IMG/VR virus record: IMGVR_UViG_3300007735_000723
Span: 1 to 40,630 of that record
Length of the DNA stretch: 40,630 nt
Direction: 5' to 3' (one strand)
Source of the DNA: a virus
Shown here: positions 10,730 to 30,440 of the stretch, one piece after another
Position numbering within the stretch: the stretch's first letter is position 1
Layout of the letters: each line of letters opens with the position of its first letter
The notes under the pieces: generated by a model
Databases searched by the model: none
The model's input: the letters and a program-made list of their open reading frames with translations, nothing else
What the model was told of the DNA's origin: nothing
Made by a program: the position numbers and the translations under genes

Positions 10730-11579
10730 AATTTTTTAAACTCAAAAATTCATCTTGTCTGCTCAATACATATTTATTTACTTTATCAAGATAACCCAAA
10801 TTTCTTAGTTCTTTGAATACCAAATTTTCCACAGAGAACTCTCCAGCCTTCTTTAATCCGGCTGAACGCATCTCTCTAAATTTCTTCTTTAATTTATCAA
10901 AAGACTCGTCATTTGAATTAGACGAAATCATGTTGTCAATTTTGTTTATAAAATCCGAAACCTTCAATTGTATTTCTGGGTCCTCCAGATTTACTTCCTC
11001 TAATTTTGGTTCATTCAACCATTGATCTCTCAATAAACTGTATGATCCCTGATTTACGGGAACTTGCTCTGACATGTCTTGAGCATAAATTTCTACATCA
11101 TGATCATAAATTTTTATATCATGCAAATTTGACCAAAGTTGTTTTTTGTCTTTCAAATATTCGTCTAACAATCCTGGACAATCAGCAATTTTAGATTTAT
11201 CTATTAAAATGTGAAGATCGATGTCTGAATATGGTGTGTAATTGAAATTTGCATTTCCACCAACCACAAGAATATCTTCAATTGCTTCATCTGGTATTTT
11301 TGCAAAATTGGCCCAAACTTTTGCTATTTGAAGAAGTTTTTTTCTAACTTCAATTTTTAATACATTATTTTCCCATAAAGCAGGATTCAATACATCATGA
11401 TATTGAAGAGTTAACTTTGAATCTTCTTCAAGAAATTCTTTTAATGTTTTTCTTTTCTTTTTGGAAATCTCAACAGCAGCCAATTGTGCAATGGCTTCCT
11501 TTTTGGTGGAATGTGTTCCAAGAATCTTCTTTCCAGAAGAATCTCTTACTTGCCATTTGTCTCCACGTTTTACAATCAT
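10728..11579 (-). CDS. Nucleotidyltransferase-fold late protein (283 aa)
   Basis: The N-terminal 40 residues (KWQVRDSSGKKILGTHSTKK EAIAQL, split here) form a small domain like those that follow 'Txx-KKEA' patterns. The main domain has DILVVGGNANFNYTPYSDID LH, with a Gly-Gly and an SDIDLH motif typical of the polymerase-beta nucleotidyltransferase superfamily; the Asp-x-Asp-like metal site is SDID. The preceding ALWENNVLKIEVRKKLLQIA is also conserved in marine T4-like homologues as I remember them. The substrate is unknown; DNA-, RNA- or toxin-type nucleotidyl transfer are all possible. It has a late promoter at the leaderless distance, unusual for an enzyme, which suggests a packaged protein. 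Confidence 0.75.
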   Translation of the reverse strand: MIVKRGDKWQVRDSSGKKILGTHSTKKEAIAQLAAVEISKKKRKTLKEFLEEDSKLTLQYHDVLNPALWENNVLKIEVRKKLLQIAKVWANFAKIPDEAIEDILVVGGNANFNYTPYSDIDLHILIDKSKIADCPGLLDEYLKDKKQLWSNLHDIKIYDHDVEIYAQDMSEQVPVNQGSYSLLRDQWLNEPKLEEVNLEDPEIQLKVSDFINKIDNMISSNSNDESFDKLKKKFREMRSAGLKKAGEFSVENLVFKELRNLGYLDKVNKYVLSRQDEFLSLKN

Positions 11580-11584
11580 GAAAT

Positions 11585-11592
11585 TATTTATG
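11585..11592 (-). promoter_or_regulatory. Late promoter element CATAAATA
   Basis: Minus-strand CATAAATA with five bases (ATTTC) to the ATG at 11579. It lies just after the tmRNA terminator. Confidence 0.7.
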
Positions 11593-11597
11593 TCAAT

Positions 11598-11632
11598 AAA
11601 AAACCCGGTTTTTCAGATGCGGGAAAACCGGG
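11598..11632 (-). terminator. tmRNA terminator
   Basis: On the minus strand, CCCGGTTTT pairs with AAAACCGGG and is followed by TTTTTT, a strong rho-independent terminator directly after the tmRNA coding piece and before the next late promoter. Confidence 0.9.
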
Positions 11633-11640
11633 AAACCCCA

Positions 11641-11924
11641 CTGCTTTAAGCAGCCATCCGCATTGGTGCGGCTTTTGTTGTTGCAACTGTTTATTTACGA
11701 CACTCGTTACCCGTGTCGGACATCTCCTTCTTCATTACTCTGTACAAATCGAAACCTATTCAGCCCCTAGTTCCCGAAGCCTAGGACTTCGGGGTTTGCC
11801 CCGCTGCTACGAGGACTTTGCTCGCCATCCCTAAAGAATTGCAGAATCTTTCGGTTAGGCTAATGGAGCCGAGGGGAGTCGAACCCCTGTGTTTGACACA
11901 TTTCAATCCGATATCAACAATGCC
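11641..11924 (-). ncRNA. ssrA: Circularly permuted (two-piece) tmRNA
   Basis: tmRNA rescues stalled ribosomes and adds a degradation tag. Read on the minus strand, the acceptor piece comes first (11924-11864), ending GGGGTTCGACTCCCC then TCGGCTCCA. A spacer (11863-11768) follows, then the coding piece (from 11767), beginning GGGGCTGAATAGGTTTCGA. The acceptor stem pairs GGGGCTG with CGGCTCC and contains the G3-U70 wobble that alanyl-tRNA synthetase needs; the discriminator is A and CCA is not encoded. Part of P2 also pairs (TTTG/CAAA, TACA/TGTG). A pseudoknot-type stem GACAC/GTGTC precedes the tag frame. The order acceptor-spacer-coding is the permuted form. A late promoter element lies five bases before position 11924. 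Confidence 0.9.
11646..11684 (-). other. tmRNA tag reading frame (ATTKAAPMRMAA)
   Basis: The resume codon is probably GCA, giving a 12-residue tag A-T-T-K-A-A-P-M-R-M-A-A followed by TAA. The Ala-Ala end is the usual protease recognition end of tmRNA tags. The stop codon lies in the hairpin CTGCTT/AAGCAG, as in many tmRNAs. The internal residues are unlike tags I know, with Met and Arg just before the end. Confidence 0.8.
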
Positions 11925-11928
11925 AAAG

Positions 11929-12495
11929 TTATTTAGTTGATTTTATGTCATAATAATAATTGTCGTCATCACCGTCTATGACCCATCTATCGCTTTCTCC
12001 TTCACACTTCCAAGACTTGTTATCAACTTTGAAATCTGGTTTTTCCGGAAATGGTTTCGTGACAAAAGACATATTCTTCCAAAAAATTCTGTTGTTTGGT
12101 TGCAGAGAATAATTTCCATTATCCAAGGCAATCATGTGTAAACATTTGTATTGGCTTGGTTCGTTGGAATATGCATTTCTATACCAATCAAAAGTCATTA
12201 TGTAATCACCCCAATGCTCAGACTTATCTTTCATTACGACTTTTGCCCGACAATCAAAAAGTGCATCGTATTTGACTACAGATACATTTTCATGGAAGCA
12301 ATCCCATAACTGCAAATAATCCAAAGGCATTTGGGGAGCATCTGGTTTCCAACAAAGCATGTGTATTGGAACTCTGCTGCGGACTATTCCATAATCAGTC
12401 ATTACATGAAAAGTCATGGCATGACCGAAACAAGACTGAGCCCCAAATACAAGCACTTTGTCAAATTCACCAACATGATTTTCGTGTTGGTACAT
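11929..12495 (-). CDS. Conserved phage hypothetical protein (188 aa)
   Basis: The protein has VLVFGAQSCFGHAMTFHVMT followed by DYGIVRSRVPIHMLCW, a block I recognise from hypothetical proteins of T4-like environmental phages. Its C-terminal part is rich in aromatic residues and Asp and ends in DGDDDNYYYDIKSTK. No catalytic motif is clear. I chose the Met at 12495 because GAAAAGAG lies before it; a frame extension to ATG 12546 is possible and directly abuts the tRNA-like RNA. The stop codon overlaps the late promoter of the tmRNA. Confidence 0.65.
   Translation of the reverse strand: MYQHENHVGEFDKVLVFGAQSCFGHAMTFHVMTDYGIVRSRVPIHMLCWKPDAPQMPLDYLQLWDCFHENVSVVKYDALFDCRAKVVMKDKSEHWGDYIMTFDWYRNAYSNEPSQYKCLHMIALDNGNYSLQPNNRIFWKNMSFVTKPFPEKPDFKVDNKSWKCEGESDRWVIDGDDDNYYYDIKSTK
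11930..11936 (-). promoter_or_regulatory. Late promoter element CTAAATA before tmRNA
   Basis: Minus-strand CTAAATA, five bases (ACTTT) before the predicted 5' end of the tmRNA precursor (11924). It shares two bases with the stop codon of the upstream gene (11929-11931). Confidence 0.65.
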
Positions 12496-12546
12496 GTGCT
12501 CTTTTCTCAAATAACAATAAAAATGATTAATATTAATATTATGCAT

Positions 12547-12738
12547 AAAAAGGTAATATGGGACTTTAACCCATTTTCCAGCTTTTACGCTGGCGCATCT
12601 CTTGTCAAGACCGCGTGTTCACACCACGCCGATTACCGAAAGCGTAGCGAGGGACTTGCACCCATTCTCAACCCTCGGTTCTAGAAACCTAGGTCCATAT
12701 AAGCCTAGCCGTTTATCCTCAGCCGCTTGACTACACGT
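12547..12738 (-). ncRNA. Unresolved structured RNA with two tRNA-like modules
   Basis: There is no gene here. The segment begins exactly five bases after a late promoter element and ends in TTTTT. It contains two modules that each end in AATGGGTNNAAGTCCC, one base away from the standard T-arm GGGTTCAAGTCCC. Module A (about 12640-12735) can pair GTGTAGT with GCTACGC, CTAGG with CCTAG and GGTT with AACC. Module B (about 12552-12637) can pair GGTAAT with ATTACC, CCAGC with GCTGG and ATGGG with CCCAT. Neither has a proper anticodon arm. They look like decayed or specialised class II tRNAs; the true fold is not solved. Confidence 0.5.
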
Positions 12739-12743
12739 AAAAA

Positions 12744-12750
12744 TATTTAG
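12744..12750 (-). promoter_or_regulatory. Late promoter element CTAAATA before the tRNA-like RNA
   Basis: Minus-strand CTAAATA followed by TTTTT; the predicted start at 12738 lies at the beginning of the structured RNA. Confidence 0.6.
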
Positions 12751-12757
12751 TTGTCAA

Positions 12758-12839
12758 TGCGAGCAGAGAGATTCGAACTCCCGTAGGCTATGCCATCTGA
12801 TTTACAGTCAGACCTCGTTGACCGCTTGAGTATACTCGC
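12758..12839 (-). tRNA. tRNA-Tyr (GTA)
   Basis: Acceptor GCGAGTA/TGCTCGC, D-stem CTC/GAG, anticodon stem TCTGA/TCAGA with loop CTGTAAA (GTA), a long variable arm around GGCATAGCC, T-arm GGGAG-TTCGAAT-CTCTC, discriminator A. This is a class II tRNA, as expected for bacterial Tyr. Confidence 0.95.
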
Positions 12840-12842
12840 AAA

Positions 12843-12914
12843 AGCCACTTACTGGATTTGAACCAGCAACCGCTGCTTTACAAAAGCAGAGCTCTACCGT
12901 TGAGCTAAAGTGGC
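12843..12914 (-). tRNA. tRNA-Thr (TGT)
   Basis: Acceptor GCCACTT/AAGTGGC, D-stem GCTC/GAGC, anticodon stem CTGCT/AGCAG with loop TTTGTAA (TGT), T-loop TTCAAAT, discriminator T. It lies three bases from tRNA-Tyr. Confidence 0.95.
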
Positions 12915-12916
12915 AA

Positions 12917-12988
12917 AGCGGATGAAGGGATTTGAACCCTCAACAGCAAGCTTGGAAGGCTAGCACTCTACCATTGAGTTACATCCGC
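12917..12988 (-). tRNA. tRNA-Gly (TCC)
   Basis: Acceptor GCGGATG/CATCCGC, anticodon loop CTTCCAA (TCC), T-arm GAGGG-TTCAAAT-CCCTT, discriminator T, as in bacterial Gly tRNA. The anticodon stem has one T-T mismatch. First tRNA of the cluster. Confidence 0.93.
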
Positions 12989-12998
12989 AAACAACAAT

Positions 12999-13026
12999 AT
13001 AATATACCATAATAATTATAAGTCAA
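12999..13026 (-). promoter_or_regulatory. Promoter of the Gly-Thr-Tyr tRNA cluster
   Basis: On the minus strand, TTGACT (13026-13021), a 16-base spacer and TATTAT (13004-12999). Transcription would start only a few bases before tRNA-Gly at 12988. Confidence 0.7.
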
Positions 13027-13100
13027 CTTTTATCTTGTTGTTTTTCAACAGATCTGGGTTGAGTTGGTCATAATATTGGAGAATGCGTTGTGAGGCTTTT

Positions 13101-13409
13101 TTAGTTTATATTTTCAAATATCGGTTTGTTCAACAAATCATTTTCAGCGTGAGATTTCAAACCACTTTCAAAAAATAATTTAACATTTTCTTCAAGTTCT
13201 TCTGAAAGCCATTCTGTTTTGATTTCTTCGTTTGTTTGTTTTGGAGAAACATAAATCTTTTTAAGAGTTAATTCGCTTGGTTCATAATAATTGTTATTAT
13301 TGATCCAAGTGCATTCATATTCTATTCTTACATATCTTTCAAAAAACAAACTAGATATGTTTTTTGACATTGTGTGGGGTGGAAGATCTATAAAGTGTGT
13401 TTTTTTCAT
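13101..13409 (-). CDS. Hypothetical protein downstream of the tail fibre gene (102 aa)
   Basis: It starts MKKTHFIDLPPHTMSKNISS and has a Tyr/Asn-rich middle (WINNNNYYEPSEL) and an acidic C-terminal helix (EELEENVKLFFESGLK). Small genes directly after a fibre gene are often fibre assembly chaperones, but no motif proves it. GGGTGAT precedes ATG 13409 and contains the stop of the upstream gene; ATG 13421 is an alternative start. Confidence 0.6.
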   Translation of the reverse strand: MKKTHFIDLPPHTMSKNISSLFFERYVRIEYECTWINNNNYYEPSELTLKKIYVSPKQTNEEIKTEWLSEELEENVKLFFESGLKSHAENDLLNKPIFENIN

Positions 13410-13413
13410 TTTA

Positions 13414-16400
13414 TCACCCATATTGATTGAATGTTGTAAATTGCTCTATATTTGCCTTGGTCATGGCTTGCATATCTGCATTAGACCATATGTAATTCCA
13501 ATACATTATTTTTCTTATATGTGTTTGACTGCTTGGTCTATCAGATGCTTGACCAAAGATGGTTGACAAATATAATGTATCATAATTTTGTGAGTATGCT
13601 GTTATACCAGTATATGTGGAAGTTCCAATATTTCCATTTGAACTAATTTTTAATGTGTATGGAGAATAAGAGTACATAAACTTTAATGGAGTATTTATTG
13701 GATAACCATTTTGTGGATAAGGCCAATATGTGATTGTATTTGTTGAACAACTTAAATCTGTTCCCCATCTACTGAGTGTTATAACAGGATTTTCAGACAA
13801 TCTAGCTACCAATGTCTGAGTAAAAAATGCTGAACTGTTTGCTATAGGAAAATCGTAGAAATTTTCTACATCATAAAATATGGTTCCTTGAGTATTTCCA
13901 AACCAAGAAGTGAAACTGCTTCCGCTTATTCTGCAGTTTTCATGGTTTCTAAAACCTCTTGTTGCACCAGATTGTATATATGATGTATAATCAACATAAG
14001 TTAATGGCTCTAGAGGAGCGGGAGTTGAAAATGCTCTCATTCTTTCCTCAACTTGAGCACCCCATATCTCAACAGAATTTCCAGTATTTCCAAGACGGAA
14101 TCCCATATGGAATGGAGAATATCTCATCCCCAATTCTGTCATTGTTAATTCTGATCCTGTTCTTCTCCATTTAGTGGACAAGTTTGTAATTTGTTTCCAT
14201 GTCGTTCCACCATCAATAGTAACAAACAAAGTTTCATTTCCGGTTACTCCACGGAACCAACAACTCCATGTTCCATACACGGTTCCGGTAGTAACGCCAT
14301 TAGTTGCCATAAGCATTGCGTTGGCAGTAGTTGCTGTAAATCTAATTCCATTGGTAAGCCCTGTTGGGGATGTTATTCCAGTTGTTCTTGAAATATTCAA
14401 ATCAATCCAATTGTTATTGCATCCACCGGATGTGGCAAAGGTTTCGCTCCAGTTCAACAAGTTTGTTGCTGATGGTTCGACCATTAGACCTTTTGGTTGC
14501 AATGTATCTTGATCATAGTTCAAACGAGGTTCATTCACAGCAGCAGTTCTTACAATTCCATTTGAATCCAAATAAGTTCCAACAGTGCTTCTAGTACAAG
14601 AAAATCCAGCTCGGATTACTGCATTATTTGAAGTCATACCCAAGAAATCAAAAACTTTAGTTGGTGCAGTATAACCTGGTTCTGGAGGAAGACCCCAAGC
14701 ACTCCATGTCAATCCAACTCCAGCCAATGTTGGGCCACTTGTACTAACCCATGTTCCAACAGGATACCCATCAGCAGAAGACAATGTAACTCCATTGCAA
14801 ATCATGGTGTATCCTGGCTTCACGGTGACTCTCCACCACCAACTATTTCCTGATGTCGCTGGAGCACCATGAGCCATGTAAGTTGAATTCCAATCATATT
14901 CACTGTAATCCGCTGTAGTTAGTGTAAATCCACCCAATCTATCGTTGATATCTTTCAAACATTCATTAAATTGATTTTGTTCACTCACCCAACCTGTCCA
15001 ACCATTTTGATATGCTTGTGTATTTACGAACCAACCGTTGGCATCAGAATTGTAGTTAATAGCCCAATTGGTCAATGCTCCGGTCCAACCCATATCAACA
15101 AACTGTGATGGATTAAAATAACCAAAATATTTTGTTCCCAATAATGCTAAATGTCTAACATAATCGTAATAATATCCACTATGGCCGGGAGTGGTTGAAA
15201 TATAAGCACCTTGCCTTGAATTATATCCTTTTTGTAAATTTGCAAATCCGGATGGTACTCCTGTTTGCCATATTGCATAATTATATTCATCTGTGGCTTC
15301 TCTGAAATAAAGATCAATATTAGAAGCGGTTCCCTTTATCTGCAATCTTGGGTGGGCATAATACGCAGTAAGACCTGCCAAATTATATCCATCATTCATT
15401 ATGGAATAACCGTTTACAAGATCTACAAGTGAAATTTTTAAAGTGCTATTATTATCGATGTCACTGAATGGTTTATTTGGTACGAATTCGTAAGAAATTT
15501 CAGTCCACCCAGAATAACCAGACAAATCTGATGGCCCTGTTCCAAAATATTGTGGCCCAGTTGACGGCAATACTCTTGAGAATGAAATACCTCTTGGATA
15601 ATTATATGACCAAGTTTTGAAATGTTCTATTAACTGTCTGTTTGGTGGAGAAAGTGTTGATCCGGAATTCAAATTCCTGTAATACGAGAATATATAAGTT
15701 ATACCAGCAGTAATTCCATTATAATAATATTGTAAAGAAGAATATGTTGATGGGGACTGATACACTCCTGCAGTCGGGAATATTCTATAAACACTGTCTA
15801 TTTTGTTTATTGGAATAGTAGTAGAACCTTCAATTTCTAGTGATGGATTTCTTACATAGATTTGATAACCCCCAGTAACTGAAAGAGAATTTGGTCCATA
15901 GTAAACATGCATGCCAATTCCACTGGTGCTCGTATTAATCGTGGAATTCGACACAAATCTCCAAGCTACCTTCGTCCAACCAGAAGCACCTACATTATAT
16001 TGTATTGCAGTAGCACCATTTGCAAAACCACCAACAACTGGTAAAATTTGTTGGAATGTAAATCCTGTTGATTCTGTTGTTGATGATGGTCTATTTGGAA
16101 CTGTTAGTGAATCATCACTTGTAGTCCATCTTATGAATCTAGCAAGTGAACCAGTATAGCCTCTGCTCAAATCTATCTCATATGAGAATACATATGTCAA
16201 ACCTGCAGTAAGAGATGGAGCGCTATAAAATAGTGCCACAGATGCTGTGGTTCCTGTTGTACCAACTGTGGTAAATTTAAATGCTGAAGTAGAACCATCA
16301 TATGTGACTCCAATAACATTTGATTTATACCAAATACCACCATTTGGACCTTGTATTACTGGTAATTTCGGTGTAACAACTCTAAATGAAGCGGTAGAAC

Positions 16401-17703
16401 CATTCCAACCAGTAAATCCTGCAAATTCTCCTGTGTATCCCTTTGTTACCGATGACAGATTATATCTATAAGTTGTACTGTGAAGAACTTCGGGTGGGGA
16501 TTGATAAATTCCAGCCCAAGGATATGCAACATAAATTTCATATTCTTTTGTTGCTAGGCAATAAAGTGGTCCAGTCCAATCTACCGATCCTATCCATGGA
16601 GTTAATGGTGTTGAAGGTGAACCTCTTTTTGCACTTCTAGCTTCTGCAAGCGTAAGAACAAATGAAGCCCATGGTCCAAAAGTCATCAATTTATTAAAGC
16701 ATCTGAAATAATTTGTGAATCCACCGACATCCAAATGTTTTCCATCATATCTTTTAACAAAACGAGAATTATTTGTGCCTCTCATTCCACCATACAATTC
16801 GGGTGCTGCTGCGTTTCCACCTGGTTCAAGATGAGGATGAGGAGAACCATCTTGTGGCCAAATTGCATTTCTTTCTCCTTCTGGTAAAAGTGGTTCACCT
16901 TCTTTGAAATAAGTATAATTAGAAGTCAGTGAATTTGGATTGTGCTCCAACATTGCCTGCAAATAAGAAAGTTGAAATGCCTTTGCTTGATATGCATCTT
17001 TTGCAGCCCACCAAGCATAACTATTTGATATGGTATTTGCTTGGTCCGCACTTCCACCCTGAGATTTGTAAATATCATACCAAGAAGTCAATCCAAAATA
17101 TGTTTGTTTATATCTTGGATCATTTCTTAGAGCATTATAAGTTCCGGAATCAACTCCACTTGGTTCATATGGAGTAGATTCATTATCAATAAGAAGTATT
17201 TCTATTAATGCTTGATTTGCTGAAGCGCCTTTCAACCAATCTGATAATAATTGATAAGATTGACAAACACCTCTTATTGGCCAAGGACCGGGATATTGAT
17301 TGCTTAATAATTGTGTTGACCAAATTCCAGTATAACCATTGTAGGATGTTGCAGAAGCTGTATTTCCAATTCCATCACCTACCCAATTATTAGTGTAAGT
17401 ATAGGTATTAAAATTCTGTATACCTCTTCTATAAAGAGGAAGTGAACGTAGTAACCTATAATCATTTTGTGAGACATTTGATAAAGTTAATCCACTGTAT
17501 CTTGTAGAATTTATAAAATGTGATCTTGGCCCAGGTAAAAGTGGACTAATATAACTATTCCCATTGGTAGAATTTATATATGTTATTAAGCCATCTGCGG
17601 AAACATTATAGGTTATTCCCCCATAATTCACAAAAGGTCTAGATTGCCCCAAATCTGGAATTGCTCGGTTTCCTGTTGAAAAATATGGTGAAGCAGTTGT
17701 CAT
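13414..17703 (-). CDS. Large tail fibre / receptor-binding protein (1429 aa)
   Basis: A very long Gly/Ser/Thr/Tyr-rich beta protein. The N-terminal 330 residues include a distinctive region (FGLTSWYDIYKSQGGSADQA) of unknown fold. From about residue 390 there are repeated carbohydrate-binding-like sandwich units marked by AGIYQSPP, AGVYQSPS, GWTKVAWRFVSN, GWTEISYEFVPN and WRRTGSELTMT. GLMVEPSATNLLNWSETF followed by VEIWGAQVEE is a C-terminal fibre module common in phages. The C-terminus (FGQASDRPSSQTHIRKIMYW) resembles LamG/concanavalin-like sandwiches. It probably sets host range by glycan binding. I chose ATG 17703: it overlaps the previous stop (ATGA) and has GGAGAAAA upstream; the frame start at 17730 lies inside the upstream gene. 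Confidence 0.8.
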   Translation of the reverse strand: MTTASPYFSTGNRAIPDLGQSRPFVNYGGITYNVSADGLITYINSTNGNSYISPLLPGPRSHFINSTRYSGLTLSNVSQNDYRLLRSLPLYRRGIQNFNTYTYTNNWVGDGIGNTASATSYNGYTGIWSTQLLSNQYPGPWPIRGVCQSYQLLSDWLKGASANQALIEILLIDNESTPYEPSGVDSGTYNALRNDPRYKQTYFGLTSWYDIYKSQGGSADQANTISNSYAWWAAKDAYQAKAFQLSYLQAMLEHNPNSLTSNYTYFKEGEPLLPEGERNAIWPQDGSPHPHLEPGGNAAAPELYGGMRGTNNSRFVKRYDGKHLDVGGFTNYFRCFNKLMTFGPWASFVLTLAEARSAKRGSPSTPLTPWIGSVDWTGPLYCLATKEYEIYVAYPWAGIYQSPPEVLHSTTYRYNLSSVTKGYTGEFAGFTGWNGSTASFRVVTPKLPVIQGPNGGIWYKSNVIGVTYDGSTSAFKFTTVGTTGTTASVALFYSAPSLTAGLTYVFSYEIDLSRGYTGSLARFIRWTTSDDSLTVPNRPSSTTESTGFTFQQILPVVGGFANGATAIQYNVGASGWTKVAWRFVSNSTINTSTSGIGMHVYYGPNSLSVTGGYQIYVRNPSLEIEGSTTIPINKIDSVYRIFPTAGVYQSPSTYSSLQYYYNGITAGITYIFSYYRNLNSGSTLSPPNRQLIEHFKTWSYNYPRGISFSRVLPSTGPQYFGTGPSDLSGYSGWTEISYEFVPNKPFSDIDNNSTLKISLVDLVNGYSIMNDGYNLAGLTAYYAHPRLQIKGTASNIDLYFREATDEYNYAIWQTGVPSGFANLQKGYNSRQGAYISTTPGHSGYYYDYVRHLALLGTKYFGYFNPSQFVDMGWTGALTNWAINYNSDANGWFVNTQAYQNGWTGWVSEQNQFNECLKDINDRLGGFTLTTADYSEYDWNSTYMAHGAPATSGNSWWWRVTVKPGYTMICNGVTLSSADGYPVGTWVSTSGPTLAGVGLTWSAWGLPPEPGYTAPTKVFDFLGMTSNNAVIRAGFSCTRSTVGTYLDSNGIVRTAAVNEPRLNYDQDTLQPKGLMVEPSATNLLNWSETFATSGGCNNNWIDLNISRTTGITSPTGLTNGIRFTATTANAMLMATNGVTTGTVYGTWSCWFRGVTGNETLFVTIDGGTTWKQITNLSTKWRRTGSELTMTELGMRYSPFHMGFRLGNTGNSVEIWGAQVEERMRAFSTPAPLEPLTYVDYTSYIQSGATRGFRNHENCRISGSSFTSWFGNTQGTIFYDVENFYDFPIANSSAFFTQTLVARLSENPVITLSRWGTDLSCSTNTITYWPYPQNGYPINTPLKFMYSYSPYTLKISSNGNIGTSTYTGITAYSQNYDTLYLSTIFGQASDRPSSQTHIRKIMYWNYIWSNADMQAMTKANIEQFTTFNQYG

Positions 17704-18764
17704 GGTTTTTTCTCCAATTGTGGTCCCCAAATTCTAGTGCTAAGTGTTGGACCACCACCATACCAGAATACACTAAGATTCATTTGTGCTGAATCTGTAT
17801 TGTTGTACCATCTATAAGTAAATCTTGTCCAGCCTGTTGCACCAACAGGAATTGCAACTCTAGCATTTCCAAAACCATCTGGTGTTACTGGAATTACATC
17901 ACCTGTTGTAGAATCGATTTGTATCCATTGATTTGAACCATGCACTGGTCTTTGCAATAGTCCACCCAAAACACTGTTGGATAAATCAAGATAATATGAA
18001 AGAATAAATGTTGCTCCAATTTCTCCAAAAGTTGATTGGCTAAAATCTTTTCTACTTGCATTTCCGGTCGTATATATATCCCAAGCCGTAGTAGTACCAT
18101 CTGGTGCAGTGTAACCAGTTGTTCTTGAATAACCTGATGTTGTTGGCCAACTCCATGGAGATGATGTGGACAGATCAGCAGAACTTGCAAAATAATTTAA
18201 AGTGCTTCCACTAGAAGTATAAGCAATATCATAAGTTGGTTGATATTGATATGACCACGCAAATGAACTTATCAAAGATCTAGATTCTGGCAAGGGAGAA
18301 GGAATAACTTGGGCTTTGATCCTAGAAGACCCATCATAAGAAGAATCCAAAGATGTATCAACAACTTCATCAAAATCTGACATTTCCATAAATGCCGTAG
18401 CCTGTGCTATGGAAATTACATGTCCATTCATGTTTATGTAAACATTTAAACTCGGCACATATGAATAAGCCAACCCATTATAAGTAAATGTCAATGGAAG
18501 GTTATCTGGTTTCTTAGTTTCCTCTACAAGATAATTTTGCTTTGTCCCACTGAAAACTCCACGATTCAAGAATTTTTTTGAAGCTTCAATTATTTTGTTT
18601 GCTTTATTTTCTTTTGGTTTTCCAAAAGATTCCAAAAACATTTCAAATTTTTCTTTTTTCTTTTCTTCTAGAAACTCTTTGCTGTAAAAATAAGTGGGAT
18701 TACCCTGTGGTCCCGGATTTGGCCTGAAAAAATTATCAATAAAAGATTGATTTGGGTGTTTCAT
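17700..18764 (-). CDS. Tail-associated carbohydrate-binding protein (354 aa)
   Basis: The N-terminal 80 residues are charged and helical (FLEEKKKEKFEMFLESF), perhaps for attachment. The rest is a beta-rich module of the same type as in the next gene: WSYQYQPTYDIAYTSSGSTL, TGYTAPDGTTTAWDIYTTGN, GATGWTRFTYRWYNNTD and a final STRIWGPQLEKKP. The 'W-x-x-x-x-x-PDGTxTA' and 'WGxQLE' motifs are typical of phage glycan-binding units. It overlaps the large fibre gene by four bases (ATGA). Its late promoter lies 36 bases upstream. Confidence 0.7.
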   Translation of the reverse strand: MKHPNQSFIDNFFRPNPGPQGNPTYFYSKEFLEEKKKEKFEMFLESFGKPKENKANKIIEASKKFLNRGVFSGTKQNYLVEETKKPDNLPLTFTYNGLAYSYVPSLNVYINMNGHVISIAQATAFMEMSDFDEVVDTSLDSSYDGSSRIKAQVIPSPLPESRSLISSFAWSYQYQPTYDIAYTSSGSTLNYFASSADLSTSSPWSWPTTSGYSRTTGYTAPDGTTTAWDIYTTGNASRKDFSQSTFGEIGATFILSYYLDLSNSVLGGLLQRPVHGSNQWIQIDSTTGDVIPVTPDGFGNARVAIPVGATGWTRFTYRWYNNTDSAQMNLSVFWYGGGPTLSTRIWGPQLEKKP

Positions 18765-18773
18765 AACAGTTAC

Positions 18774-18801
18774 TTGACCCTACAATTTTGCAGGCTATAC
18801 T
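18774..18801 (+). promoter_or_regulatory. Early promoter, leaderless
   Basis: TTGACC at 18774-18779, a 16-base spacer and TATACT at 18796-18801; ATG at 18811. Its -10 overlaps by one base the opposing late element at 18801-18807. Confidence 0.75.
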
Positions 18802-18807
18802 ATTTAG
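18801..18807 (-). promoter_or_regulatory. Late promoter element CTAAATA
   Basis: Minus-strand CTAAATA, 36 bases before the ATG at 18764. The leader contains TAGGG about ten bases upstream of the start. Confidence 0.55.
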
Positions 18808-18810
18808 ATC

Positions 18811-19008
18811 ATGACCAATAAGGAACTTGAGGAATTGATTTACGCTTATGGGGAAACCATGAAGCAAATCGGTCGCTGTGAAACTGATGGAAAAGTAGGA
18901 ATGAAAGAATACAATAAATTAATTTCCGAAAAGGAAAAAATTATTCAAAAGTTTGATTCATATTTTAAATCAAATATAAAAGTCTTAAAAACCTTAAACC
19001 TTACCTGA
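18811..19008 (+). CDS. Small helical early protein (65 aa)
   Basis: MTNKELEELIYAYGETMKQI followed by further charged helix and a Lys-rich C-terminus. It has a textbook early promoter nine bases before the ATG and no Shine-Dalgarno. Its 3' end overlaps the end of the opposing gene at 18994. I recognise no family; small early helical proteins of phages often modify host functions. Confidence 0.7.
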   Translation: MTNKELEELIYAYGETMKQIGRCETDGKVGMKEYNKLISEKEKIIQKFDSYFKSNIKVLKTLNLT

Positions 19009-19203
19009 AAGATAAGATGTACCAAAGGTTTTTTGGATTATTTCATCTACTTTTTCCGGGGCATAACCACGAAGTTTTTCCATAGCTTCTTTTCTAATAG
19101 CCTTCGACCATTCATCCAATCCTTTTTGAGATACATTGGATCCAGTTGATGGCGTTACCACTTGTTGTACATTATACAAATTTCCTTCATTTAATTTATT
19201 CAT
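18994..19203 (-). CDS. Small late protein (69 aa)
   Basis: A short protein with a Gln/Val/Ser-rich N-terminal part and a charged helical second half (KAIRKEAMEKLRGYAPEKVD EII, split). I chose Met 19203 because GATAAATA lies five bases before it; the frame's first ATG (19218) lies inside that promoter element. It ends head-to-head with the early gene at 18811, overlapping by 15 bases. No family recognised. Confidence 0.65.
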   Translation of the reverse strand: MNKLNEGNLYNVQQVVTPSTGSNVSQKGLDEWSKAIRKEAMEKLRGYAPEKVDEIIQKTFGTSYLSGKV

Positions 19204-19208
19204 ATAAT

Positions 19209-19216
19209 TATTTATC
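19209..19216 (-). promoter_or_regulatory. Late promoter element GATAAATA
   Basis: Minus-strand GATAAATA with five bases to ATG 19203. It lies directly against the plus-strand ATG at 19217. Confidence 0.65.
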
Positions 19217-19519
19217 ATGCCAAGAATTAAAAAAACATCTTCTCAGCCAAAAAGAAAACCAAAACCTCCAATTAAAATTGTCAGGCCATTATATCCAGAA
19301 TATATTGAAAATTTTATAAGAGAAGTGGAAATTAAGACTCCTTTTACCGTAAAAATTGACAAATATGGTGAAAAAGAGACATATCATATCGGCATCAATA
19401 AAAAGGAAGGAAAGACACACAGATGTCTTTGGATGGCAAGTTACGTTACTGCAGCAGAACATTTAGTTCATTTTTGGACTTCGGCTGTCGTGCAAAATAT
19501 GAATAATAAATCAATATAA
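19217..19519 (+). CDS. Hypothetical basic protein (100 aa)
   Basis: The N-terminus is strongly basic and Pro-rich (MPRIKKTSSQPKRKPKPPIK), probably disordered and nucleic-acid binding. The body (EVEIKTPFTVKIDKYGEKET, then HRCLWMASYVTAAEHLVHFW) looks folded. TATAAT lies eight bases before the ATG, without a clear -35. Its stop codon is part of the late promoter of the next gene. Function unknown. Confidence 0.6.
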   Translation: MPRIKKTSSQPKRKPKPPIKIVRPLYPEYIENFIREVEIKTPFTVKIDKYGEKETYHIGINKKEGKTHRCLWMASYVTAAEHLVHFWTSAVVQNMNNKSI

Positions 19520-19522
19520 ATA
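19515..19522 (+). promoter_or_regulatory. Late promoter TATAAATA (plus strand)
   Basis: A perfect TATAAATA, eight bases before ATG 19531, containing the TAA stop codon (19517-19519) of the preceding gene. It is one of two late elements found on the plus strand. Confidence 0.7.
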
Positions 19523-19530
19523 TTTGTATC

Positions 19531-19776
19531 ATGTACGACAAATATTTTGTAGCAAATCCCATAACAATTGGTTCAAAAATTCCAAAGCACAAGGGTATTT
19601 TATTTTCTGGTGCAACCAGCACTACCCCCGCAGTCACTCTGCATTTAATTAACAATAACGGTGGTACTTTTACCGTAGGATTGAATGTAAATATGTCTCC
19701 ATACATATTTCCGATGCAAGTTTATGCTATTCCCTCTGCTTTGCCTACAGGCTTGACTGCATTCCACATATCCTAA
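19531..19776 (+). CDS. Small beta-rich late protein (81 aa)
   Basis: MYDKYFVANPITIGSKIPKH, then GATSTTPAVTLHLINNNGGT and FPMQVYAIPSALPTGL. The Thr/Val/Gly-rich, beta-type composition and late promoter suggest a minor virion protein, such as a decoration or tail component. No family recognised. The next gene follows after one base. Confidence 0.6.
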   Translation: MYDKYFVANPITIGSKIPKHKGILFSGATSTTPAVTLHLINNNGGTFTVGLNVNMSPYIFPMQVYAIPSALPTGLTAFHIS

Positions 19777-19777
19777 A

Positions 19778-19984
19778 ATGTCCAAAGAAATCCGCTGCTT
19801 GATCACAAACAAGATCTTGCAGCCTGATGAGTGGTATTGGTATTCATGGGAAATAGAAGCGCCAATATCTGCTCCGGGTATGGTTGAATTAGAAAATCGT
19901 CGTCATGATCCTGACGACGATTTTGCTAGAATGCTTTGGGAAGAATGGGAATGGTCTAGAGAGATCGGCTACCCAAATATTTAA
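19778..19984 (+). CDS. Small acidic Trp-rich protein (68 aa)
   Basis: It contains CLITNKILQPDEWYWYSWEI and RRHDPDDDFARMLWEEWEWS. The high Trp and Asp/Glu content is unusual. It follows the previous stop by one base and its end overlaps the opposing gene by four bases. No function is visible. Confidence 0.6.
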   Translation: MSKEIRCLITNKILQPDEWYWYSWEIEAPISAPGMVELENRRHDPDDDFARMLWEEWEWSREIGYPNI

Positions 19985-20562
19985 CCATTTAACATTTTAT
20001 TGATCTTTTGATTTACAGATTCCATAGGCATCATTGCTGATCTGCCATATGCATCTACAACTTCCACAGATCTTTCTGGTTCTATTGTTTCAGCGTGTCT
20101 GGCTGCAACTCTTTCGGCTCTTTTTTGGGCCTTGTATTTTTCTTTTTGTTCTTTGCCACCTGCTACAGCAAGAGTTCTAGTTTCTTCTCTTGCTTTTGCT
20201 GCAAGTGGGTATGTTGGCAAATTTTCTTTTGTTAAAAAAGGATCGGTATCCAAAAATTCTTCTTCGTCACCAATAATTCCGTCAGAAGCATCTGATGCAA
20301 CTTGATTTGCATTTCCTGCAGGCTTTATATCACCAACAGCATCTGGGTCTTGTCCTTGTAGGCTTGTTAGATTTCTTTTTTCACCTCTAGCAATTTTTTC
20401 AGCTCTGATTTGACTCAAAGTTTGTTGTTGCTCAGGTGTCATCTTTTCTTGGTCATTGCCGCTTTTGGCCTCAGATAACATTTCACGGCCCTTTTGATGG
20501 GCTTCCAATGCTGCTGCGTTCATGGAGTGAATCCAACTGTAATAGCCTTTATTATTCTTCAT
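19981..20562 (-). CDS. Charged late protein (193 aa)
   Basis: MKNNKGYYSWIHSMNAAALE then long Glu/Lys/Ala/Gln-rich helices, an acidic patch (GIIGDEEEFLDTDPFLTKEN) and AARHAETIEPERSVEVVDAY near the end. The composition resembles phage head-core or scaffold-type proteins. Met 20562 is chosen because CTAAATA lies five bases upstream; an ATG seven codons earlier lies within the promoter. The opening 'YYSWIHSMNAAALEAHQKG' is probably a conserved phage N-terminus, but the family is unknown to me. Confidence 0.65.
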   Translation of the reverse strand: MKNNKGYYSWIHSMNAAALEAHQKGREMLSEAKSGNDQEKMTPEQQQTLSQIRAEKIARGEKRNLTSLQGQDPDAVGDIKPAGNANQVASDASDGIIGDEEEFLDTDPFLTKENLPTYPLAAKAREETRTLAVAGGKEQKEKYKAQKRAERVAARHAETIEPERSVEVVDAYGRSAMMPMESVNQKINKMLNG

Positions 20563-20567
20563 AAAAA

Positions 20568-20574
20568 TATTTAG
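20568..20574 (-). promoter_or_regulatory. Late promoter element CTAAATA
   Basis: Minus-strand CTAAATA followed by TTTTT and ATG (20562). It lies two bases from the -35 of the divergent early promoter at 20577. Confidence 0.7.
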
Positions 20575-20576
20575 AC

Positions 20577-20604
20577 TTGACAATCCTTTAGTATATGCTA
20601 ATAT
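20577..20604 (+). promoter_or_regulatory. Early promoter, near-leaderless
   Basis: TTGACA at 20577-20582, a 16-base spacer and TAATAT at 20599-20604, then eight bases to ATG 20613. Confidence 0.75.
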
Positions 20605-20612
20605 ATCAATCT

Positions 20613-20756
20613 ATGAACAGCGCAGGCAAAGGCGATTCTTACAGACCCGTAAACTACAAAGTTTATTGTGAAAATTGGGATAAAATTTTTGGATGTCAGA
20701 AAAAGAAGAAATCAAAAAACTCAGGGAAAAAGTCCAAGAACTCCAAAAAACAGTAA
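20613..20756 (+). CDS. Small Lys-rich early protein (47 aa)
   Basis: MNSAGKGDSYRPVNYKVYCE followed by NWDKIFGCQKKKK and a Lys/Ser tail. The 'GKGDxxRPVxxxxYxxNWDxIFG' pattern is one I recognise from tiny proteins in many phages, with unknown function. It is preceded by an early promoter and overlaps the next gene by 64 bases in another frame. Confidence 0.65.
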   Translation: MNSAGKGDSYRPVNYKVYCENWDKIFGCQKKKKSKNSGKKSKNSKKQ

Positions 20757-20839
20757 TGGAACTTACCAAAGCCAGTGGTAAACTGGCATTGGAAAACATG
20801 GATCTAAAAAAGAAACTTGACAAAAAGAAAAAAAAGTGA
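20693..20839 (+). CDS. Small coiled-coil protein overlapping its neighbour (48 aa)
   Basis: MSEKEEIKKLREKVQELQKT, then TKASGKLALENMDLKKKL and a final poly-Lys run. It is a clean leucine-zipper-like coiled coil. Its first 64 bases overlap the end of the 47-aa gene in another frame, and its last codons contain the -35 of the next promoter. No good Shine-Dalgarno is visible, so it may be expressed by coupling. The coiled-coil heptads argue that it is real. Confidence 0.5.
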   Translation: MSEKEEIKKLREKVQELQKTVMELTKASGKLALENMDLKKKLDKKKKK

Positions 20840-20845
20840 TATACT
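20817..20845 (+). promoter_or_regulatory. Early promoter, leaderless
   Basis: TTGACA at 20817-20822, a 17-base spacer and TATACT at 20840-20845, then six bases to ATG 20852. The -35 lies inside the coding sequence of the coiled-coil gene. Confidence 0.8.
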
Positions 20846-20851
20846 ATAGTC

Positions 20852-21025
20852 ATGCCTAATTCAAAGCAACGTATTACTAACCGTAAGCACAAGCGCCGTC
20901 AGGAAAGACTAAAGCGCCGTAGGGCCCGTAGCCTTATGGATGCAAAGATTGGTACACTCCGAGAGCTTGACCGGATTGGCCAACTTCCCAAGATTGTCAA
21001 GCAAGAGAGATTGCCTAATGGCTAA
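20852..21025 (+). CDS. Very basic small early protein (57 aa)
   Basis: MPNSKQRITNRKHKRRQERL, then KRRRARSLMDAK and a milder C-terminal half (LRELDRIGQLPKIVKQ). The Arg-rich first half could bind RNA or DNA. The leaderless early promoter supports it strongly. It overlaps the next gene by eight bases (ATGGCTAA). Function unknown. Confidence 0.7.
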   Translation: MPNSKQRITNRKHKRRQERLKRRRARSLMDAKIGTLRELDRIGQLPKIVKQERLPNG

Positions 21026-21314
21026 TGCCACACAGATGCCTCTTGAAGAGGTTCGTAAAAAGTTTGATTCTGTAGATTGTTTCTTTACTTATTACGATGG
21101 TGAAAAGTCCACCTTTGATTTTTATGGGACGAACGATACTGGTTTTGAGGTTCGTATTTCTTTGGGTGGATGTCCTGCTTGGATCAAGCACCTTTCATTT
21201 GGACCTAATAATCCTATAAATATCAGTGACGCAATGAGTCGTCATGTTCGTTACATTTCCGTTACAAACAATCACGGAAAAGTTTTGTATGAACAGTTCT
21301 TTGATGTCACTTGA
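21018..21314 (+). CDS. Hypothetical protein (98 aa)
   Basis: MANATQMPLEEVRKKFDSVD, then FFTYYDGEKSTFDFYGTNDT and a mixed alpha/beta remainder (HVRYISVTNNHGKVLYEQFF). The start is chosen at the ATG overlapping the previous stop; the longer frame from 20940 is a shadow of the basic protein gene. No known family. Confidence 0.65.
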   Translation: MANATQMPLEEVRKKFDSVDCFFTYYDGEKSTFDFYGTNDTGFEVRISLGGCPAWIKHLSFGPNNPINISDAMSRHVRYISVTNNHGKVLYEQFFDVT

Positions 21315-21323
21315 AAGGAAATC

Positions 21324-21758
21324 ATGAACAATTCTGATCACAATGATTTTGAACAATGGCAAAATGGGGACTATGAGGAAAATAACCCAAATAATTATTT
21401 TCCATCAAATTTTCCCTTCCATCTCCATTGGAAATATTATGGCCCCAACTCTGCAAAGTTTCGCAAGATGTGGGAGGAAATGAATAAGGGCGATGGACTT
21501 GAAGAACTTGCCAATTATCTTAATTTGAATGACATCTTCAAGCAGAACATGGAAAATGAAATCAATAAGAAGAATGCTTCTCGCAGATCTCCTAAAAAGA
21601 ACACAACGGTAGTTAATTTTACTCAAGAGGAATATATGAAGCTTATTGAGATTCGTGGTTATCTTGCCATCACTGAGCAGTATGCTCATGTAAAGGCTCT
21701 TGACAAAGTTTTGAATCAAATCAAGATGATTCCTTATCCGCCGAAGCAAAAGGATTGA
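21324..21758 (+). CDS. Hypothetical Asn-rich protein (144 aa)
   Basis: The N-terminal half is acidic and Asn/Tyr-rich (YEENNPNNYFPSNFPFHLHW); the second half is helical (TQEEYMKLIEIRGYLAITEQ). AAGGAAATC precedes the ATG. It is cotranscribed with its neighbours and followed after one base by the last gene of the unit. Function unknown. Confidence 0.65.
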   Translation: MNNSDHNDFEQWQNGDYEENNPNNYFPSNFPFHLHWKYYGPNSAKFRKMWEEMNKGDGLEELANYLNLNDIFKQNMENEINKKNASRRSPKKNTTVVNFTQEEYMKLIEIRGYLAITEQYAHVKALDKVLNQIKMIPYPPKQKD

Positions 21759-21759
21759 T

Positions 21760-21981
21760 ATGATTTCTTATAAACCCGGTGAAGGTTATGATGATGGATT
21801 CAAGTGTCGCATGAATGGTGGATCAAAACCACCACACGCAATCAATGGCAGTGATTTATATTGGAAAGAATATGCAATTGGTTGGGACGATGCCGACAGC
21901 AAGATCATAAGTGAAGCAAGAGACAGAAATACTTGCAATAAACCAAAGTGTTGTAAAACTAAAAAGTTTATTCAGGATTGA
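21760..21981 (+). CDS. Hypothetical small protein (73 aa)
   Basis: YKPGEGYDDGFKCRMNGGSK followed by YWKEYAIGWDDADSKII and a Cys-containing tail (NTCNKPKCCKTKKF), which could bind zinc. The 'YxxGYxDG...YxxGWxDA' spacing is common in small phage and bacterial proteins of unknown role. AAGGA lies upstream of the ATG. The stop codon overlaps the start of the terminator stem. Confidence 0.65.
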   Translation: MISYKPGEGYDDGFKCRMNGGSKPPHAINGSDLYWKEYAIGWDDADSKIISEARDRNTCNKPKCCKTKKFIQD

Positions 21982-22004
21982 AAAAGCCCCGAAAGGGGCT
22001 TTTT
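21981..22004. terminator. Bidirectional terminator
   Basis: AAAAAGCCCC-GAAA-GGGGCTTTTT gives a 10-bp stem with a GAAA tetraloop and U-runs on both strands. It separates the rightward early unit from the leftward virion block. Confidence 0.9.
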
Positions 22005-23585
22005 TTATTGCTTCTTCTTAAACAAAGAAGTATATAAATCATTTTCTCCAAACTTTGTATTTGTAAGTTGTGCAAGTTTTTCTGCAAAATTTTCTTTTGC
22101 GCTTGCTTGGAGAACAACATTTCGCCCCACATCAGTTTTATCTTCTTGATAGAATGGAAGGTTTCTTTTAAATGCTTTTTTGATTCCTTCTTTTGCTAGA
22201 CGAGCACTTATTTCACCGATCATTGCAAATTTACCAGGTCTTTTTTTGCTTCCGGATTTCACATAAGCCTTTGATAAAAGTTTTTTGACATTTGGCATAT
22301 GTGAATGATCGACATATTTTACATTTCCATCTTGGTCATGAATAACAACAAAACTATTTTTATCAGGCTTTCCGGTATCAAATTCTGATGTAGGAATTTG
22401 TCTTGGTTTTTTATTATTATCTTGAAATTTACCAGATTTATCTTCCCATCTTCCTCTTGCGCTTTTTGTGTCTATCTTTATTGGCGAATCGGAAACATGA
22501 CTATCTTCAATTGTTAAATCTGGAATTCCGTGAGTTGATACATGGGGAACTGTTGCTTTAAATGATTTTTGCTTCGCTGTAAAAGTAAACACAGCATTTG
22601 ATTTATCTTTTTGATCAGAACCATGAACTTTATTTATAGAAGAATTTAAATGATTTTGAAAATCTTTAAATTTTACTGAAGTCGGGTCTTGTCCTTTTAA
22701 ATGAACAACAATATCATCATCGTCATTTAACTGATGAAGATTTTTTACATGATTAGTTAAAAAATTACCAACTGCTGAGTATTGTGCTTTTGCAATTTTA
22801 TTTAAATTTGCGCGGCCTTGTGACATATCTTCATTTTCAAACAAATAATCAAATAATGATTTATCCACATCCTCCATAAAATTTTTTGCTGGATAAGTGA
22901 TCCAATGTAATTCGTGCTCTCCATTCAAAGGATTTAAAGATTTTACGGCAACCTTTGCACTCTTATTTCTTCTTTGAAATCTTTGCAAATATTTTTTTGT
23001 TTCACTGTCGGGAACATCTGTCCATTTCTTGGCTGCTTTGTATTGAACAAATTCTTCTGGATCAACTTCAAAAATGTCTGAATTTGAAAAGTAATTCGGT
23101 TTCTTTCTTCGCATCAATGGCATTCCCATTTTTGGATCGAAGCCGGCAATACCACCCTGATTGATTGCTTGTGCTGGTGTTCCAAGGGAACCTGCTGCAC
23201 CGCCTCCTGCCCCTATTGCCATGTCTTCCAACAACTCAAGATAACTCAATTCTCCGTTTGTGTTCTGAGTCACTATCCCTTCAACCAAACAATGAAATTG
23301 TTCTTGTGTGATTTTAAACTTTTCAATTTCCTCTCCAAACAATTGAAGAGTTGACATGTAATTTGCTAATTTGGCCTTTGTCGTGCCATATGGCAATTGT
23401 TCAAATATCTTCTTTAATTTTATTACGAGATATTCAAATGCATCTATGCTGCTTTCTGCTTTCAATAGATTTCCATTTTCATCTATTGCTCCACCTTGGT
23501 AGGCGGTCAAAGAAGTATATGGGCTGCTGATTGCTTGCGCCAACTTATAGAAATAGAAAGAGGGTACGTATGTACTGGGTTGCAT
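22005..23585 (-). CDS. Virion-type protein of T4-like phages (526 aa)
   Basis: It begins MQPSTYVPSFYFYKLAQAIS and continues PYTSLTAYQGGAIDENGNLL, a start I recognise from conserved late proteins of marine T4-like phages. A Gly-rich hinge (AIGAGGGAAGSLGTPAQ) follows at about residue 128. The second half is rich in Lys, Asp and Ser (for example HVSDSPIKIDTKSARGRWED), and a restriction-nuclease-like core 'PDLTIED...IKIDTKSARGRWEDK' is possible but not clear. Late promoter six bases before the ATG. Function unknown; internal head protein or maturation factor are options. Confidence 0.65.
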   Translation of the reverse strand: MQPSTYVPSFYFYKLAQAISSPYTSLTAYQGGAIDENGNLLKAESSIDAFEYLVIKLKKIFEQLPYGTTKAKLANYMSTLQLFGEEIEKFKITQEQFHCLVEGIVTQNTNGELSYLELLEDMAIGAGGGAAGSLGTPAQAINQGGIAGFDPKMGMPLMRRKKPNYFSNSDIFEVDPEEFVQYKAAKKWTDVPDSETKKYLQRFQRRNKSAKVAVKSLNPLNGEHELHWITYPAKNFMEDVDKSLFDYLFENEDMSQGRANLNKIAKAQYSAVGNFLTNHVKNLHQLNDDDDIVVHLKGQDPTSVKFKDFQNHLNSSINKVHGSDQKDKSNAVFTFTAKQKSFKATVPHVSTHGIPDLTIEDSHVSDSPIKIDTKSARGRWEDKSGKFQDNNKKPRQIPTSEFDTGKPDKNSFVVIHDQDGNVKYVDHSHMPNVKKLLSKAYVKSGSKKRPGKFAMIGEISARLAKEGIKKAFKRNLPFYQEDKTDVGRNVVLQASAKENFAEKLAQLTNTKFGENDLYTSLFKKKQ

Positions 23586-23591
23586 CTAAAA

Positions 23592-23598
23592 TATTTAG
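23592..23598 (-). promoter_or_regulatory. Late promoter element CTAAATA
   Basis: Minus-strand CTAAATA, six bases before ATG 23585. Its TAA is the stop codon of the upstream gene (23595-23597). Confidence 0.7.
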
Positions 23599-23993
23599 TT
23601 TTCTGCCTGAGAGAGTTTTCTGTCAACTCTGGGATCCGTGTTTAGGACGGAATATCTTACTTCGGGAAAATCTTTGTTTGGAAATTCCAAAAATACAGTA
23701 AAAGATTTTAAGTAAGAATGTAATTTTGGCTCAAGTTTAAAAAATAAAATTCGGAGACATCTTTCTTCCCCGAATACATTTCTTAAAATTATTAGATGGT
23801 TTATTATAAGTCTTTCACGTATAGATTTCAGTGTTTTATGCTTATGAATCTTTTGCAATAATCTTTTTATGTATTTGATTCTTTTTAAATCATCCACAAA
23901 CTCATTCTTGCCGGAGCATTCTGGGTTAAAATAATATCTCTGACAGAATTCCATAAAATTTTCTTCTGTCAGAGAAGTTATATTATTATTCAT
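23595..23993 (-). CDS. Conserved T4-like phage protein (132 aa)
   Basis: The pattern ENFMEFCQRYYFNP then EFVDDLKRIKYIKRLLQKI and RLIINHLIILRNVFGEERCL matches a small protein conserved in T4-type phages near the structural genes ('EFxxDLxRxxYIKRLL...RLILNHIIxLxNVFG'). It is helical, without catalytic residues. The start at 23993 is the first Met of the conserved part; the longer frame to 24068 runs inside the upstream gene. GAAG lies upstream, next to the previous stop. Confidence 0.7.
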   Translation of the reverse strand: MNNNITSLTEENFMEFCQRYYFNPECSGKNEFVDDLKRIKYIKRLLQKIHKHKTLKSIRERLIINHLIILRNVFGEERCLRILFFKLEPKLHSYLKSFTVFLEFPNKDFPEVRYSVLNTDPRVDRKLSQAEN

Positions 23994-24000
23994 TAATACT

Positions 24001-24555: not shown

Positions 24556-24566
24556 GGCTTCTCTTC

Positions 24567-24573
24567 TATTTAG
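24567..24573 (-). promoter_or_regulatory. Late promoter element CTAAATA
   Basis: Minus-strand CTAAATA, eleven bases before ATG 24555, leaving a leader of about five bases. Confidence 0.65.
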
Positions 24574-24574
24574 A

Positions 24575-30439: not shown

Positions 30440-30440
30440 A

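What the first reader, a model, noticed from the sequence alone, without database searches (positions are those of the whole stretch)
11641..11924. Phage-encoded permuted tmRNA under a late promoter
The acceptor piece precedes the coding piece, the G3-U70 pair and T-arm are intact, and a full tag (ATTKAAPMRMAA) with a strong terminator follows. Phage tmRNAs are uncommon and permuted ones even more so. The late promoter suggests use during virion production. The permuted form is known from alphaproteobacteria, cyanobacteria and some betaproteobacteria, so it may have come from a past host.
Basis: partly seen in the sequence, partly recalled or inferred. Interest (0 to 1): 0.82.

Follow-up and report, generated by a model that had tools for sequence, protein, structure and literature searches.

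The report
Two-piece rescue RNA in a phage
A T4-like phage carries its own complete gene for the two-piece version of tmRNA, the bacterial RNA that frees stuck ribosomes; the gene is real and one of a family found in dozens of related uncultured phages, but phage genes of this kind were already known.

Summary
On the minus strand (11924-11641) lies a complete circularly permuted tmRNA gene: acceptor piece, 96-nt intervening segment (IVS), coding piece, tag ATTKAAPMRMAA, terminator. ARAGORN calls it and Rfam RF04321 scores 58.7 bits (gathering 47). Relatives in dozens of uncultured viral contigs keep it: all 64 distinct genes parsed hold G3-U70 and A73 while pairs 4-69, 5-68 and 6-67 covary. 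The phage is T4-like (gp23 in related contigs); no SmpB was found in 14 related records, so host SmpB must serve. The 'late promoter' gains support: [A/C]TAAATA lies 11-13 bases before the acceptor piece in 25 of 50 distinct upstream contexts. Timing is untested. A particular past host is not supported: alpha, beta and cyano tmRNA models all score below cut-off, and scans of 85,000 genomes found no copy. Permuted phage tmRNAs are published (Melnitz; 53 in isolates), so this is a new member of a known kind. Two features deserve follow-up: the IVS is a conserved, covarying RNA with a loop-loop pseudoknot, repeatedly lost or replaced in relatives; and in 19 of 35 distinct tag regions of relatives one extra base puts the conserved tag in the +1 frame after a near-identical resume context.

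The parts
11930..11937 (-). T4-like late-promoter motif ACTAAATA; T4 spacing would put the transcription start at about G11924
   Evidence: the motif recurs at -11 to -13 in 25 of 50 distinct upstream contexts
11864..11924 (-). acceptor (tRNA-like 3') piece: P2 strand, T-arm, 3' acceptor strand, discriminator A73; CCA not encoded
11872..11888 (-). T-arm AGGGG-TTCGACT-CCCCT
   Evidence: 3 of 5 pairs show changes on both sides, 99.5% of cells paired
11865..11871 (-). 3' strand of the acceptor stem CGGCTCC (U70 pairs with G3)
   Evidence: G3-U70 and A73 in 64 of 64 distinct genes; pairs 4-69, 5-68 and 6-67 covary
11768..11863 (-). intervening segment (IVS), 96 nt, expected by analogy to be removed on maturation; conserved structured RNA
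11833..11851 (-). IVS hairpin H1, loop holds CUGCAA; an outer GCC/GGC helix flanks it
   Evidence: covariation; in L202 GCC/GGC reads GGC/GCC (sequence)
11799..11814 (-). IVS hairpin H2; its loop GCAG pairs with the H1 loop CUGC (kissing pseudoknot)
   Evidence: CUGC/GCAG becomes CUGU/ACAG in two sequences
11773..11793 (-). IVS hairpin H3, loop UCCUAGG with palindromic hexamer; absent in the 71-73 nt IVS class
   Evidence: 5 of 7 pairs with changes on both sides
11761..11767 (-). 5' strand of the acceptor stem GGGGCTG, start of the coding piece (expected RNase P site)
11698..11718 (-). hairpin CGACAC..GTGTCG in the PK1 position
   Evidence: 97.6% of cells paired, 2 pairs with changes on both sides
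11646..11684 (-). tag reading frame: resume codon GCA, ATTKAAPMRMAA, stop TAA
11641..11653 (-). hairpin CUGCU-UAA-AGCAG over the stop codon
   Evidence: 100% of cells paired in 41 sequences, one pair with changes on both sides
11598..11632 (-). terminator-like hairpin with T6
   Evidence: sequence; not listed by the scanner because of its long loop

Best explanation
This is an intact two-piece tmRNA gene of a large T4-like phage. Inferred working: RNA polymerase starting at the late-type promoter motif, or reading through from the tRNA cluster upstream, makes one precursor that ends at the hairpin terminator. Host RNase P cuts before G11767, and host 3'-processing enzymes cut after A11864 and add CCA, releasing the IVS. 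The two pieces stay joined by the acceptor stem and P2. G3-U70 leads host alanyl-tRNA synthetase to charge it, and host SmpB takes it to ribosomes stalled on broken messages, where it appends ATTKAAPMRMAA (C-terminal AA, as in tags for Clp proteases) and frees them. During infection this would keep ribosomes available when messages are being degraded. Shown here: gene architecture; conservation of the alanine-identity pair, tag and helices; position of a late-type promoter motif. Inferred: transcription, processing, charging, tagging, timing and benefit.
For: ARAGORN and Rfam above cut-off; relatives above cut-off in 12 of 14 related records (most of these were chosen because they carry the gene, so this is not a frequency). 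Covariation of T-arm, P2, PK1 hairpin and post-stop hairpin with shuffle and slide controls; acceptor stem with G3-U70 and A73 invariant in 64 of 64 distinct genes. Tag of 12 codons ending in hydrophobic-Ala-Ala across relatives. Late-type motif at fixed spacing. Same place beside the nucleotidyltransferase-like ORF in the window and in L007, L008, L010, L011. T4-like: gp23 in 7 of 14 related records. No SmpB in 14 related records, while 10 of 14 control genomes ring.
Against: No RNA or protein data. The window is a fragment and the host is unknown. RF04321 scores 58.7 bits here, within the 51-82 of its relatives but far under the 113 of Melnitz. One P2 pair is unpaired in most sequences. Relatives differ by one base in the spacing between resume codon and tag, so the resume rule in this family is not understood.
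Confidence: 0.85

Rival explanations
1. A decoy or inhibitor of the host's tmRNA: it binds SmpB and stalled ribosomes but tags poorly or differently, damping host quality control, as suggested for the tag-less tmRNA-like RNA of phage DS6A.
For: A phage tmRNA-like RNA that inhibits the endogenous tmRNA in E. coli is reported (DS6A, in PMC11915505). In 19 of 35 distinct tag regions of relatives the tag is out of the frame expected from the resume context.
Against: The window keeps a full in-frame tag and stop, and tag ends are conserved in relatives of both frames. A decoy would need no tag.
Confidence: 0.09
2. A captured bacterial tmRNA that is decaying and has no role in the phage.
For: The IVS form changes at least 11 times on the tmRNA tree, and CCA is not encoded.
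Against: Compensatory changes in the functional helices and invariant G3-U70 over dozens of contigs show long maintenance; no bacterial genome held carries the patterns searched.
Confidence: 0.04
3. Bacterial sequence wrongly assembled into a viral contig.
For: The window is a metagenome-derived fragment without an isolate.
Against: The same gene sits beside the same ORF in several independent contigs and in related contigs with gp23.
Confidence: 0.01

Closest known systems
Permuted two-piece tmRNA of Methylophilales phage Melnitz (MZ577097; PMC9004378)
   Same: Permuted ssrA in a large phage with T4-like genes; RF04321 match.
   Different: Melnitz encodes CCA, carries tag ANDNYVPVDYALAA, passes the alphaproteobacterial model (106.7 bits) and is followed by a glutamine riboswitch. 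The window lacks CCA, has another tag and another IVS, and passes none of the three clade models.
Rfam RF04321 tmRNA_permuted, merged from alpha, beta and cyano models (PMC11915505)
   Same: tRNA-like domain, permuted order and tag; score above the gathering cut-off.
   Different: Clade-specific regions do not match well: beta 37.8 bits (cut-off 84), cyano 31.2 (70), alpha no match in the window.
tmRNAs of Streptomyces, Gordonia and Enterococcus phages (some annotated as tmRNA)
   Same: A short T-arm/acceptor stretch of 27-35 bases is alike.
   Different: The match does not extend beyond that stretch; their gene form was not examined here.

Membership tests
permuted (two-piece) tmRNA | acceptor piece encoded upstream of the coding piece, separated by an IVS | tested here: met
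permuted (two-piece) tmRNA | Rfam RF04321 above gathering score | tested here: met
   58.7 against 47 bits
permuted (two-piece) tmRNA | acceptor stem with G3-U70 and T-arm, conserved by covariation | tested here: met
permuted (two-piece) tmRNA | open tag frame ending in Ala-Ala and a stop | tested here: met
permuted (two-piece) tmRNA | precursor is cut into two mature RNAs, charged with alanine, works with SmpB | not testable with these tools
   needs RNA and protein experiments; SmpB not found in related records
alphaproteobacterial tmRNA (RF01849) | model score above 50 bits | tested here: not met
   no match at E 1 in the window; at most 25.7 bits in relatives
betaproteobacterial tmRNA (RF01850) | model score above 84 bits | tested here: not met
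   37.8 bits in the window, at most 53 in relatives
cyanobacterial tmRNA (RF01851) | model score above 70 bits | tested here: not met
   31.2 bits in the window, at most 42.3 in relatives
T4-type late promoter | TATAAATA-like element about 6-13 bases before the transcription start, used late in infection | tested here: inconclusive
   ACTAAATA, 6 of 8, at fixed spacing; start site and timing not measured

The most novel reading that the evidence does not exclude
The 96-nt IVS is not a passive spacer but a functional RNA module (GCC/GGC helix, two hairpins joined by a loop-loop pseudoknot, third hairpin with a self-complementary hexamer loop) that controls maturation of the two-piece tmRNA or is released as a small RNA. 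In everything searched it is confined to this phage tmRNA family.
Probability: 0.2. Interest if true: 0.65.

Novelty: new member of a known kind. Interest (0 to 1): 0.42.

Why it matters
It adds a well-supported family of phage-encoded two-piece tmRNAs, distinct from the alpha, beta and cyano types, with a late-type promoter motif in place. Its relatives give natural material for two questions: how tmRNA sets its resume frame (near-identical upstream context, tag in frame 0 or +1, at least six switches by parsimony, three forced by well-supported branches), and whether an IVS can have a role of its own.

Tried and rejected
Rfam search of the IVS alone at E up to 10 found no riboswitch or ribozyme, so resemblances that I first saw to twister or HDV-like ribozymes were dropped. 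A covariance model of the IVS over 1.2 Mb of related loci found it only inside tmRNA genes. Pairing of the IVS 5' end (AGCCUA) with the H3 loop was considered and dropped because L263 keeps the 5' end but has loop GCUAGC. Scans of species genomes for the PK1 and IVS patterns found nothing. No near DNA relative of the window's 11000-31000 stretch among phage records. Host not identified: gp23 of a related contig is nearest, at 51-54%, to cyanophages, with a Stenotrophomonas phage at 53%. A tree with bacterial permuted tmRNAs was not built because no bacterial sequences were at hand. MAFFT misplaced part of the acceptor 5' strand in alignment A1, so acceptor counts come, not. Tag columns in the tables were read in one frame only and were replaced.

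Full report
What is there. On the minus strand of a 40.6-kb viral fragment (IMG/VR record) ARAGORN finds a permuted tmRNA with tag ATTKAAPMRMAA, and Rfam finds RF04321 at 11646-11924 with 58.7 bits, cut-off 47. Read 5' to 3' on that strand: motif ACTAAATA (11937-11930), acceptor piece (11924-11864), IVS (11863-11768), coding piece beginning with acceptor strand GGGGCTG (11767-11761), PK1-type hairpin, tag and TAA (11684-11646), a hairpin over the stop, and a terminator-like hairpin with T6 (11632-11598).

More than chance. Relatives were fetched through the neighbouring ORF, the ribonucleotide reductase and DNA patterns. In an alignment of 41 distinct genes the stated structure has 89.7% of cells paired (shuffles 83.7%, slid structures 37-45%) and 29 of 65 pairs with changes on both sides (shuffles 11.9). 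Over 64 distinct genes G3-U70 and A73 never change, while pairs 4-69, 5-68 and 6-67 vary with compensation; CCA is never encoded. Single-sequence folding energy is only mildly better than shuffles (z -1.9), so the case rests on the model and on covariation.

The phage. Related contigs encode gp23, the T4-type capsid protein (7 of 14), nearest at 51-54% to cyanophages, with a Stenotrophomonas phage close behind. There is no match to SmpB in the 14 related records; the records may be incomplete. The window itself encodes a ribonucleotide reductase, a DNA primase, an adenylosuccinate synthetase and a tail protein. The host is unknown.

Promoter. TAAATA lies within 45 bases before 12 of 26 minus-strand predicted ORF starts (simple binomial P 4e-12; several of these ORFs may not be genes). 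Before the acceptor piece, [A/C]TAAATA is at -11 to -13 in 25 of 50 distinct upstream contexts, though the sequence around it differs; in most of the others a tRNA or tRNA-like RNA directly abuts. This is the spacing of a T4 late promoter whose start is the first base of the acceptor piece (T4 geometry from general knowledge). In T4 this motif is late; here the timing is inferred. A sigma-70-like site before tRNA-Gly (13026-12999) could give earlier read-through.

Origin. None of the three clade models reaches its cut-off in the window or in eight relatives; beta scores highest in eight of the nine records, and by a hair less than cyano in one. No species genome held contains the PK1 pattern or the IVS pattern, though exact patterns miss diverged copies. 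Blastn of the window's gene against 50,697 phage records matches only the T-arm region. A particular donor cannot be named.

The IVS. In relatives the IVS is 5-6 nt (one clade), 31 nt, 71-73 nt, 95-99 nt, or 122 nt and more. The 95-99 nt form has a GCC/GGC helix, hairpin H1, hairpin H2 whose loop pairs with the H1 loop, and hairpin H3; 11 of 24 pairs show changes on both sides against 5.0 in shuffles. The loop pairing changes from CUGC/GCAG to CUGU/ACAG in two sequences. The H3 loop hexamer is self-complementary in each form read (CCUAGG, GCUAGC, CCCGGG, and GCAUGU with G-U). The shorter forms look like partial losses; the 122-nt and longer forms hold a different, tRNA-like insert. The form changes at least 11 times on a tree of the rest of the gene. 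A module that is conserved where present yet often lost may be a folding aid, a processing signal or a passenger; I cannot tell which. Whether other permuted tmRNAs carry a structured IVS was not tested.

The tag frame in relatives. Upstream of the resume codon nearly all read AAACAGTT|GCA, AAACCGTT|GCA or CAACAGTT|GCA. In 16 of 35 distinct sequences, including the window, the tag is in frame with GCA. In 19 one extra base puts the conserved tag end in the +1 frame (QKIIANELAMAA, QKLIAAPMAMAA, QTMIANKLAMAA). The same tag ends occur in both frames, the extra base is not always in a run of A, and frame 0 often has no sensible end. The frame label needs at least 6 changes on the tree, 3 forced by starred branches. 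How these RNAs set the resume frame is unexplained.

Prior art. Melnitz has a two-piece tmRNA, and its authors found 53 two-piece tmRNAs among 133 unique phage tmRNAs, 50 of them from marine or aquatic phages (PMC9004378). The tmRNA database lists 79 unique phage sequences (PMC11915505). The window is therefore a new member of a known kind, with features that merit testing.

Steps shown: architecture, conservation, covariation, motif position. Steps inferred: transcription timing, processing by host enzymes, charging, SmpB use, tagging and benefit to the phage.

Noticed in passing
relatives L007, L013, L046, L163, L188, L202, L204, L209 and others: In 19 of 35 distinct tag regions one extra base puts the conserved tag in the +1 frame after a near-identical resume context (AAACAGTT|GCA); at least 6 frame switches on the tree.
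   Followed up: partly
window 12645-12738 and 12556-12637 (-): Two tRNA-like elements between tRNA-Tyr and ORF 11929-12546, not called by ARAGORN or by Rfam at gathering scores. The first has T-loop UGCAAGU and is one of 25 distinct sequences of its kind in the loci held, often after a [A/C]TAAATA motif. Best Rfam lead is RAGATH-21 at E 4.4, which is not significant.
   Followed up: partly
L017:830-1144, L018, L232, L206, L236: A different insert of 122 nt or more in the tmRNA IVS, tRNA-like by eye (GGTTAG..CTAACC ends, altered T-arm), with motif GCGTAAAA like the second tRNA-like element of the window.
   Followed up: no
Caulobacter phage CcrColossus JX100810.1, about 132369-132662 (L262:676-969): Unannotated permuted tmRNA missed by ARAGORN (RF04321 83.8 bits, RF01849 53.5 bits) between tRNA-Cys and tRNA-Met; blastn matches at the T-arm in further Caulobacter phage records.
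   Followed up: partly
window ORF starts at 1151, 10716, 11579 (-): TAAATA starts exactly 11 bases before ATG; with T4 late-promoter spacing the transcript would begin at the start codon, that is, possibly leaderless mRNAs.
   Followed up: no
window 34460-35449 (-): Adenylosuccinate synthetase family protein, best PHROG named 2-aminooxy adenylosuccinate synthetase; a PurZ-type role in modified adenine was not tested.
   Followed up: no
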